Positions 58,631 to 59,588 of a DNA stretch of 64,000 nucleotides are shown here, piece by piece (position 1 is the stretch's first letter; every line of letters starts with the position of its first letter). The notes under the pieces were generated by a model. It ran no database searches and was not told the DNA's origin. It saw nothing but the letters and a program-made list of their open reading frames with translations. A program made the translations under genes and the position numbers. Source of the DNA: Couchioplanes caeruleus (GTDB taxonomy: Bacteria; Actinomycetota; Actinomycetes; Mycobacteriales; Micromonosporaceae); contig NZ_CP092183.1 of the NCBI RefSeq assembly GCF_023499255.1, positions 7,126,501 through 7,190,500 on the forward strand, written 5' to 3'.

Positions 58631-59014
58631 TTACTCGCCTTCGGTGGAGCCGGTGACAGCGCTGAAGGAACGGCCGAGGGACGCGCCGGCGGCGGAGGTG
58701 GGGCGCCCGAGCAGGGCGGCCGCCGCGGCGAAGCCGAGGGCGCCACCGGCCACGGCCGGGAGGATGGTGACCGAGTCGCCGTCGCTGACCTTGGCGTCGA
58801 GCGCGCCGAGGAAGCGGACGTCCTCGTCGTTCACGTAGATGTTGACGAACCGGTGCAGGCCGCCCTCGGGCGTGATGAGCCGGCCCTTGAGGCCCGAGTG
58901 CTTGGCGTCCAGGTCGTCGATCAGACCGGACAGCGTGTCGCCGGAGCCCTCGACGACCTTCGCGCCGCCGGTGTAGCTGCGCAGGATGGTCGGGACGCGA
59001 ACTTCGATAGCCAT
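58631..59014 (-). CDS. cysO: Sulfur-carrier protein CysO with C-terminal extension beyond Gly-Gly
   Basis: 127 residues. The ubiquitin-like core matches CysO ([41 protein letters not shown]), with Gly90-Gly91 where M. tuberculosis CysO ends at ~93 residues. Here translation continues in frame for 36 residues (starting [14 protein letters not shown], ending GSTEGE) before TAA. A free Gly-Gly carboxylate is required for thiocarboxylate formation, so a protease must remove the tail. AGGAG lies 10 nt before the ATG. The JAMM protease gene mec is two genes upstream. Confidence 0.93.
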
Positions 59015-59076
59015 GACTGTAATGCTCCTAGAAAGAGTGTGCCGAGAGACGTTCGGGGGCGGGTCGGAAGTGACGC

Positions 59077-59160
59077 TCAGCGACACTCGTAGTAGACCGA
59101 CGCGGGGCTCTGCCCGAACATGTACGACTGGACGGCGTGCCCGTCCGCACTCATACTCAC
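59077..59160 (-). CDS. 27-codon small ORF between mec and cysO
   Basis: GTG 59160 overlaps the mec stop (GTGA), and an in-frame ATG follows two codons on. The peptide from the ATG reads MSADGHAVQSYMFGQSPASV then YYECR. A single Cys codon lies next to last, followed by Arg and the stop. Tight coupling to mec and position before cysO suggest either a leader peptide that senses cysteine or a conserved microprotein. I do not recognise a family. Confidence 0.5.
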   Translation of the reverse strand: MSMSADGHAVQSYMFGQSPASVYYECR

Positions 59161-59588
59161 GCCTCCACCGTCGCATCCACGATGTTGACCTCTTCCTCGG
59201 TCACCACACCGTCCACGATACGGAACGATCGGATTTCCTCGGAATCCGGCTCACGGGTCGAGACGAGCAGATAGTGCGCGCCCGGCTCACCGGCGAACGA
59301 GATGTCCGTGCGGGACGGATAAGCCTCGGTCGCGGTGTGCGAGTGGTAGATGACGACCGGTTCCTCGTCGTTGTCGTCCATCTCGCGCCAGACCCGCAGC
59401 TGCTCCATCGAGTCGAACTCGTAGAACGTCATCGAGCGCGCCGCGTTGTCCATGACGATGTGCCGCGTCGGCAGGTCGCTGCCGATCGGCCCGGCGACCA
59501 CGCCGCAGGCCTCGTCGGGGTGGTCCCGGCGGGCGTGGGCGACGATCGCTTCGAGGATCGCGCTGTCGATGGTCAGCACGTCGTTCAC
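59157..59588 (-). CDS. mec: Mec, JAMM/M67 metalloprotease
   Basis: 143 residues with the complete JAMM motif: Glu ~26 in DEACGV, His82-x-His84 in YHSHTATEAYPSRTD, then Ser92 and Asp95. In mycobacteria Mec frees cysteine from the CysO-cysteine adduct. Here it may also trim the CysO tail to expose Gly-Gly. GTG 59588 chosen; GTG 59579 is also in frame. Heads mec-small ORF-cysO-cysM. Confidence 0.93.
   Translation of the reverse strand: MNDVLTIDSAILEAIVAHARRDHPDEACGVVAGPIGSDLPTRHIVMDNAARSMTFYEFDSMEQLRVWREMDDNDEEPVVIYHSHTATEAYPSRTDISFAGEPGAHYLLVSTREPDSEEIRSFRIVDGVVTEEEVNIVDATVEA

What the first reader, a model, noticed from the sequence alone, without database searches (positions are those of the whole stretch)
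58631..59588. CysO made as a precursor with 36 residues beyond Gly-Gly, encoded beside its likely processing protease
Seen: the CysO core runs to AVAGG (residues 90-91) then continues in frame for 36 residues to TAA, with an intact JAMM protease (Mec) two genes upstream and CysM directly downstream. Known: CysO of M. tuberculosis ends at Gly-Gly, and sulfur carriers such as QbsE and HcyS need a JAMM protease to remove C-terminal residues before activation. Inference: in this lineage Mec has a second, ubiquitin-like maturation role, or the hydrophobic tail ([12 protein letters not shown]) tethers or delays CysO until cleavage.
Basis: partly seen in the sequence, partly recalled or inferred. Interest (0 to 1): 0.8.

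Follow-up and report, generated by a model that had tools for sequence, protein, structure and literature searches.

The report
Cysteine sulfur carrier with selected tail
In this soil bacterium and its relatives the small protein that carries sulfur for making cysteine is built with extra residues hiding its working end, and evolution has tightly preserved the first dozen of them, which suggests that a trimming step, probably by the neighbouring protease, does more than remove waste.

Summary
CysO (window 58631-59014, minus) continues 36 codons past Gly90-Gly91, between an intact JAMM protease (Mec) and CysM. It is no artefact: 58 of 58 Actinoplanes-group loci read carry a tail. The 36 residues are two things. 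Residues 92-104 ([13 protein letters not shown]) are selected as protein (codons 92-103: dN/dS 0.035, core 0.199). Residues 105-127 behave as neutral read-through of the cysO-cysM spacer (1.13) and contain a candidate cysM ribosome-binding site. Of 41 Micromonosporaceae genus representatives, 27 have an AxGx-type tail and 6 end at Gly-Gly. Of 178 distinct CysO cores, 139 are capped, mostly starting with Ala or Ser; ThiS and MoaD loci read from the same family end exactly at Gly-Gly, 30 of 30 each. Best reading: a propeptide removed after Gly91, most likely by Mec, the genome's only Prok-JAB match over cut-off. Capped carriers with JAMM proteases are in print, so this is a new variant of a known kind. 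Cleavage was not testable. In passing: a conserved Mec C-terminal peptide is a separate micro-ORF in Actinoplanes, and its Cys codon is always TGT.

The parts
58631..59014 (-). cysO ORF, 127 codons plus TAA
   Evidence: PF02597 E 7.5e-17
58742..59014 (-). CysO core, residues 1-91, ending PAVAGG
   Evidence: 82 residues of the model at pLDDT 90 or more
58742..58747 (-). Gly90-Gly91, the expected cleavage and thiocarboxylate point
   Evidence: invariant in the 27-row and 57-row alignments and in 200 of 200 loci; part of this is by construction, since CysO ends were located by their Gly-Gly
58703..58741 (-). Conserved propeptide [13 protein letters not shown], residues 92-104
   Evidence: dN/dS 0.035 over codons 92-103 in 45 distinct sequences; ALGF without a nonsynonymous change
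58634..58702 (-). Residues 105-127, [23 protein letters not shown]: variable spacer read-through
   Evidence: dN/dS 1.13 over 15 distinct spacer-coded tails; 25 of 45 distinct sequences stop at codon 105 instead
58638..58642 (-). GAAGG, candidate ribosome-binding site of cysM inside the read-through part; would explain the recurring TEG in the tail
   Evidence: motif match only
57661..58626 (-). cysM, cysteine synthase (cysKM family)
   Evidence: TIGR01136 346.5 bits, cut-off 344.15
59157..59588 (-). mec, JAMM protease with intact motif, likely processing enzyme
   Evidence: only Prok-JAB match over cut-off in the genome
59077..59160 (-). Micro-ORF VSMSADGHAVQSYMFGQSPASVYYECR, GTG start overlapping the mec stop (GTGA); homologous to the in-frame Mec C-terminus of other genera

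Best explanation
CysO is translated as an inactive precursor whose functional glycine is buried in a peptide chain. A protease, most likely the neighbouring JAMM enzyme Mec, cuts after Gly91. MoeZ can then adenylate and thiolate Gly91, CysM uses the thiocarboxylate to make CysO-Cys, and Mec releases cysteine by cutting the same kind of bond a second time. Because Mec already cuts a bond after Gly-Gly, loss of the stop codon after Gly-Gly is tolerated in this gene, which would explain why caps of many lengths come and go in CysO but were not seen in ThiS or MoaD. In Micromonosporaceae one such cap has become fixed and selected: A-(L/F)-G-(F/L)-A-A-A-A-A, 12-13 residues in Actinoplanes, probably as a recognition or timing segment of the precursor. 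The remaining 23 residues in the window are spacer read-through without selected sequence. Shown: tail, conservation, selection pattern, gene neighbourhood, controls. Inferred: cleavage, Mec as the protease, role of the 12-mer.
For: Tail in 58 of 58 Actinoplanes-group loci; dN/dS 0.035 for codons 92-103, 0.199 core, 1.13 spacer part. Mec and CysO occur in the same 156 of 160 family genomes and are both missed in the same 4. The genome has one Prok-JAB match over cut-off and one strong ThiF-type E1 (285.8 bits; a second at 35.9 bits) whose end reads like a rhodanese domain (my reading). Its ThiS and both MoaD-like proteins end at Gly-Gly; ThiS 30 of 30 and MoaD 30 of 30 loci read from family genomes do too. 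First cap residue is A, S, C or G in 47 of 61 non-AxG caps (77%), against 43%, 42%, 23%, 31% and 57% at positions two to six; it resembles the Cys that Mec removes from CysO-Cys. Tail disordered and so accessible in the model. Literature: in strain CB00739 deletion of the JAMM gene ptmS1 abolished the product made with capped carriers (PMC6006322, section 7 read); MoaX of M. tuberculosis is cut after its Gly-Gly, before Ser, by an unidentified protease (PMC4326299, passages).
Against: No cleavage was or could be shown here. Mec accompanies CysO in the family whether or not it is capped, so co-occurrence does not single out a maturation role. A plain leaving peptide would not need 12 conserved residues; why they are kept is unexplained. 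In PMC6006322 deletion of the capped carrier ptmS2 itself left production intact, which the authors put down to redundancy. First residue Met in 11 of 61 non-AxG caps departs from the small-residue rule. The dN/dS test is pairwise and ignores phylogeny; 4 of 80 contiguous 12-codon windows and 225 of 5000 random sets of 12 core codons were as low. In 34 sequences, all but a few from other genera, the tail is less constrained (0.162, core 0.291), and 6 of 41 genus representatives lack any tail. The 58 loci were found with the full-length query, tail included, which favours tailed relatives; the 40 other genus representatives were found with the core alone.
Confidence: 0.72

Rival explanations
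1. The precursor is cut after Gly91, but by another protease; Mec only releases cysteine from CysO-Cys.
For: The protease that cuts MoaX after Gly-Gly is called unidentified in PMC4326299; two weak JAB-like matches below cut-off exist in the genome.
Against: Mec is adjacent, its active-site residues are intact, and it is the only Prok-JAB match over cut-off; PtmS1 precedent.
Confidence: 0.13
2. The tail is retained and does a job in the intact protein (docking to CysM, Mec or a membrane, or marking it for breakdown), with only part of the pool, or none, being trimmed.
For: Strong selection on a hydrophobic 12-mer, more than a leaving group needs.
Against: Gly-Gly is kept and the pathway partners (E1, CysM, Mec) are all present, and that pathway needs a free terminal Gly (PMC3227635, passages); tail is disordered in the model; 6 of 41 genus representatives do without it.
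Confidence: 0.11
3. The whole tail is neutral: a stop codon was lost and the frame simply runs to the next stop.
For: True of residues 105-127 (dN/dS 1.13) and apparently of many Frankia and Gordonia caps, which share little sequence (not tested by dN/dS).
Against: Codons 92-103 have dN/dS 0.035, with ALGF unchanged in 45 of 45 distinct sequences despite synonymous change.
Confidence: 0.03
4. Sequencing or frame error in the window's cysO.
For: None found.
Against: Same tail start in 58 of 58 Actinoplanes-group loci from many assemblies.
Confidence: 0.01

Closest known systems
PtmS2/PtmS1 of strain CB00739 (thioplatensimycin; PMC6006322; a Streptomyces, species recalled)
   Same: Sulfur carrier with residues after Gly-Gly (MV), gene clustered with a JAMM protease; deletion of the protease gene blocks the product that depends on capped carriers.
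   Different: Cap of two residues, against 36 here, of which 12-13 are conserved and selected.
QbsE/QbsD (thioquinolobactin, Pseudomonas)
   Same: QbsD is cited in PMC6006322 as the protease that exposes Gly-Gly of a capped carrier; the original paper was not seen and the name QbsE is recalled.
   Different: Siderophore pathway; short cap (recalled).
CysO-CysM-Mec of Mycobacterium tuberculosis
   Same: Homologous core (PDB 3dwg_C) and the same partners (PMC3227635, passages).
   Different: CysO ends at Gly-Gly; in the passages seen Mec is described only as releasing cysteine from CysO-Cys.
Actinobacterial ThiS/MoaD-JAB-cysteine synthase-ClpS operon, type 4d of PMC1779556
   Same: Same neighbourhood including a helical protein (DUF2017 here; the equation of the two is mine); the paper already suggests JAB enzymes free the carrier C-terminus when ThiS or MoaD is fused to other proteins.
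   Different: No mention of a cap or tail on the actinobacterial carrier in the passages seen.
MoaX of M. tuberculosis (PMC4326299)
   Same: Internal Gly-Gly cut before Ser to give a working carrier.
   Different: The removed part is a whole enzyme subunit (MoaE), not a short peptide; protease unidentified.

Membership tests
CysO (ThiS/MoaD family sulfur carrier of the CysM pathway) | beta-grasp ThiS-family domain | tested here: met
   PF02597 62.1 bits, cut-off 22.5; confident core model
CysO (ThiS/MoaD family sulfur carrier of the CysM pathway) | Gly-Gly at the end of the domain | tested here: met
   residues 90-91
CysO (ThiS/MoaD family sulfur carrier of the CysM pathway) | Gly-Gly is the end of the translated protein | tested here: not met
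   36 further codons; not met in 139 of 178 distinct cores either, so it does not define the family
CysO (ThiS/MoaD family sulfur carrier of the CysM pathway) | operon with CysM and Mec | tested here: met
   all three in 110 of 110 loci
Capped sulfur carrier matured by a JAMM protease (PtmS2 and QbsD-dependent type) | residues after Gly-Gly | tested here: met
Capped sulfur carrier matured by a JAMM protease (PtmS2 and QbsD-dependent type) | clustered JAMM protease with intact metal and catalytic residues | tested here: met
Capped sulfur carrier matured by a JAMM protease (PtmS2 and QbsD-dependent type) | protease removes the cap to expose Gly-Gly | not testable with these tools
   needs an enzyme assay
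Mec / Prok-JAB | Glu, H-S-H, x7, Ser, x2, Asp JAMM signature (recalled as the definition) | tested here: met
   invariant columns E23, H79, S80, H81, S89, D92 (numbering of L069) in 25 rows, window included

The most novel reading that the evidence does not exclude
The Micromonosporaceae cysteine operon carries two short, selected C-terminal peptides that act beyond the catalytic domains: the AxGFAAAAA propeptide of CysO, which times its entry into the pathway, and the peptide VQSYMFGQSPxxVxYEC at the end of Mec, whose invariant TGT cysteine codon, with the peptide ending 41-116 nt before cysO in the loci measured, makes it a cysteine-sensing leader read in cis. Because it works as a nascent peptide it could be cut loose as a coupled micro-ORF in Actinoplanes, and in one other sampled genus, without losing function. 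Carrier supply would then be set twice by cysteine, once at translation and once by proteolytic maturation.
Probability: 0.12. Interest if true: 0.78.

Novelty: new variant of a known kind. Interest (0 to 1): 0.52.

Why it matters
If right, the JAMM enzyme of the CysO pathway is a maturation protease as well as a cysteine-releasing hydrolase in many Actinomycetota, much as ubiquitin-like proteins are made as precursors. It gives a simple reason why this carrier accumulates caps (its partner protease already cuts after Gly-Gly), offers natural substrates with 1 to over 40 extra residues for mapping JAMM specificity, and warns that CysO proteins cloned at full coding length in these genera may be inactive.

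Tried and rejected
Sequencing error or lost stop: rejected by 58 of 58 loci. Tail as one functional 36-mer: rejected, the last 23 codons behave neutrally. Tail as part of the fold: not supported, pLDDT 51 falling to about 43. Presence or absence of Mec as a test of maturation: not informative within the family, where both are in the same 156 of 160 genomes. In the phylum sample 172 of 296 genomes had a CysO-like match (E up to 1e-12) and 160 of 296 a Mec-like match (E up to 1e-10); the sets differ (G067 and G069, for example, have only the first), but the weaker CysO-like matches may be other carriers, so I drew nothing from it. RNA element: no Rfam match up to E 1 in window 57400-60600. Conserved RNA structure between the Mec peptide and cysO: not found. 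RNAalifold gave -9.99 for 45 split sequences against a column-shuffled mean of -3.64 and minimum of -12.28, and 0.0 for 54 fused ones, so a structured attenuator is unsupported. Placing the Mec peptide on the protease: the model of fused Mec (L069) leaves residues 138-143 and 146-162 below pLDDT 50. A first regular expression missed 12 of 110 CysO ends; 11 were read, and L053, garbled there. A first script misplaced the ends of 5 ThiS and 4 MoaD controls; one search read those 5 and 4 as ending in Gly-Gly (it matched 23 of 30 ThiS, the other 7 being among the 25 read, and 30 of 30 MoaD). The protein search scored 8000 candidates and listed 120; it was used only as a first look. The original papers on QbsE, HcyS, Mec and the 2-thiosugar CysO work were not among the listings and were not seen.

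Full report
WHAT IS THERE. The window comes from a single-contig genome of 8.42 Mb whose closest named matches are Actinoplanes and allied genera. On the minus strand, in order of transcription: mec (59588-59157), a 27-codon micro-ORF (59160-59077), cysO (59014-58631) and cysM (58626-57661). The cysO product has 127 residues; the ThiS-family domain ends at Gly90-Gly91 and 36 residues follow. The two closest PDB relatives, 4n6e_B and 3dwg_C, end at Gly-Gly.

TWO-PART TAIL. I read 58 Actinoplanes-group loci: 30 (the window's own genome and 29 of the 35 other same-genus genomes, all of which matched) and 28; 45 sequences are distinct over codons 1-104. Every one continues past Gly-Gly. These searches used the full-length query, which favours tailed relatives. 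In 25 of the 45 distinct sequences the stop comes at codon 105 and in 5 more at codon 106; the remaining 15 have tails of 19 to 36 residues. Pairwise dN/dS is 0.199 for the 91 core codons, 0.035 for codons 92-103 (bootstrap 95% 0.004-0.082; 0.054 without the five alanines) and 1.126 for the part after codon 104 in the 15 distinct long tails. Four of 80 contiguous 12-codon windows in the core and 225 of 5000 random sets of 12 core codons are as low as the tail, so the 12-mer ranks with the most constrained parts of a highly conserved protein. The late part contains GAAGG, AAGGC or GAGG 8-11 nt before the cysM start in 14 of the 15 long-tailed sequences, and GAAGG stands outside the coding frame in three loci with a short tail and a long spacer (L020, L055, L061); loci with a short tail and a short spacer mostly show no such motif. 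The recurrent ending TEG is therefore probably the cysM ribosome-binding site read as protein (motif match, inference).

DISTRIBUTION. For the rest of the family I searched 160 genomes with the core alone and read one locus from each of 40 other genera; with the window this makes 41 of the 44 genera in the sample (one was not fetched, two had no CysO match). By the pattern used, 27 have an A-(L/F/V)-(G/A/L)-(F/L/I/G) tail of 8 or more residues (one of them, AVLGGAVAGGAAALS of L165, is a loose match), 6 end at Gly-Gly and 8 have short or other caps (M twice, AR, SVDRM, ALATWS, ALGSPPAE, AGAV, ASVG). Over the 200 loci L001-L200, 178 distinct cores remain after dropping 22 duplicates by core; 39 have no cap and 139 have 1-44 residues. 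In L068 and L080 the count started from a second Gly-Gly; from the first, their tails have 49 and 43 residues. The first cap residue is A 98, S 22, M 11, C 3, G 2, R, H and E 1 each. Leaving out the Actinoplanes-type tails (61 left), A, S, C or G make up 77% at the first position, then 43, 42, 23, 31 and 57% at positions two to six, on falling numbers (51 to 21). On a quick tree of CysO core plus Mec (175 rows) presence of a cap changes at least 21 times, the first residue 18 times, and the AxG tail 6 times. Caps come and go often, but the residue next to Gly-Gly is restricted.

CONTROLS. In the same genome ThiS ends AAQGG and the two MoaD-like proteins end SVAGG and PFAGG; the fifth PF02597 match lies inside a long protein that reads like a RelA-type enzyme (my reading). 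In family genomes 30 of 30 ThiS and 30 of 30 MoaD loci read (of 37 and 40 matches listed in 41 genomes) end at Gly-Gly. The genome has one Prok-JAB match over the family cut-off (Mec) and two below it, one strong ThiF-type E1 and a second weak one over cut-off. CysO and Mec were found in the same 156 of 160 family genomes and in neither of the same 4. AlphaFold2 gives a confident core and a disordered tail.

HOW IT PROBABLY WORKS. The CysO pathway needs a free terminal Gly for adenylation and thiolation by MoeZ (PMC3227635, passages). A peptide after Gly91 must therefore go. Mec already hydrolyses the bond between Gly-Gly and cysteine in CysO-Cys (same passages). A cap beginning with Ala, Ser or Cys offers Mec nearly the same junction. 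This would make loss of the stop after Gly-Gly almost harmless in this gene and explain the many unrelated caps. In Micromonosporaceae one cap was then kept under selection. Its likely role is recognition or timing in the precursor. That step is inference.

WHAT IS KNOWN. PMC6006322 (section 7 read; passages) describes capped carriers in strain CB00739, PtmS2 with MV and PtmS3 with C, a JAMM gene ptmS1 beside ptmS2, loss of product on deleting ptmS1 but not on deleting ptmS2, and cites QbsD as the model. PMC4326299 (passages) shows MoaX cut between Gly82 and Ser83. PMC8832034 (start of abstract in a search listing) says a Deinococcus JAMM enzyme was reported to cleave a MoaD-MoaE fusion. PMC1779556 (passages) lists the actinobacterial operon with JAB, cysteine synthase and ClpS and suggests that JAB enzymes free carrier C-termini. 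I saw nothing on a conserved tail of CysO in Micromonosporaceae in the listings of ten searches of the open library; subscription papers are mostly missing from it. Hence: new variant of a known kind.

THE MEC PEPTIDE. The micro-ORF between mec and cysO is not noise. VQSYMFGQSPxxVxYEC, or a close form, is the in-frame C-terminus of Mec in 38 of 40 other genus representatives of the family; it is separate in one (L144) and missing in one (L170). Weaker forms end Mec in some other families (L107, L182, L183, L188). In 58 of 58 Actinoplanes-group loci mec stops before it and the peptide continues in the other frame, always with a G before the TGA so that GTGA overlaps stop and start. In L144 the frames overlap differently. 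dN/dS of its 17 codons is 0.142 (27 distinct sequences). The Cys codon is TGT in 58 of 58 split loci and 58 of 58 others. Among the genus representatives in which both codons could be read it is TGT in 39 of 39, while the invariant Cys of the Mec catalytic region is TGC in 33 of the same 39. Synonymous conservation points to a nucleotide-level role, such as codon-specific pausing or an overlapping signal. No conserved RNA structure was found, so this stays unexplained.

Noticed in passing
window 59077-59160 (-); 58 Actinoplanes-group loci; L144: A conserved 17-residue Mec C-terminal peptide, fused to Mec in 38 of 40 other genus representatives, is a separate GTGA-coupled micro-ORF in 58 of 58 Actinoplanes-group loci, and separate with a different overlap in L144.
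   Followed up: partly
window, codon TGT of YEC in 59077-59160 (-); 116 loci: The Cys codon of this peptide is TGT in 116 of 116 loci, while a neighbouring invariant Cys of Mec is TGC in 72 of the same 116; cause unknown.
   Followed up: partly
L068 and L080 (Parafrankia/Frankia), CysO tails: The tail contains a second near-copy of the carrier end (TILPAVAGG), a short duplication that places two Gly-Gly ends in one protein.
   Followed up: no
L138, L181, L171, L199, CysO tails: Repeats inside the tails, e.g. AAQKGTAGG twice in L181 and SGGL-type units three times in L138.
   Followed up: no
G000:C1:5665306-5666791 (L202, L210): A weak JAB-like match (below cut-off) lies just before a ThiF-like match (over cut-off), possibly a separate ubiquitin-like or defence-type gene pair.
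   Followed up: no
window 60594-61217 (-): DUF2017 protein (PF09438, 157.7 bits) with a match below cut-off to the AosR oxidative-stress regulator model, upstream in the same neighbourhood; the next ORF reads like ClpS (not searched).
   Followed up: no
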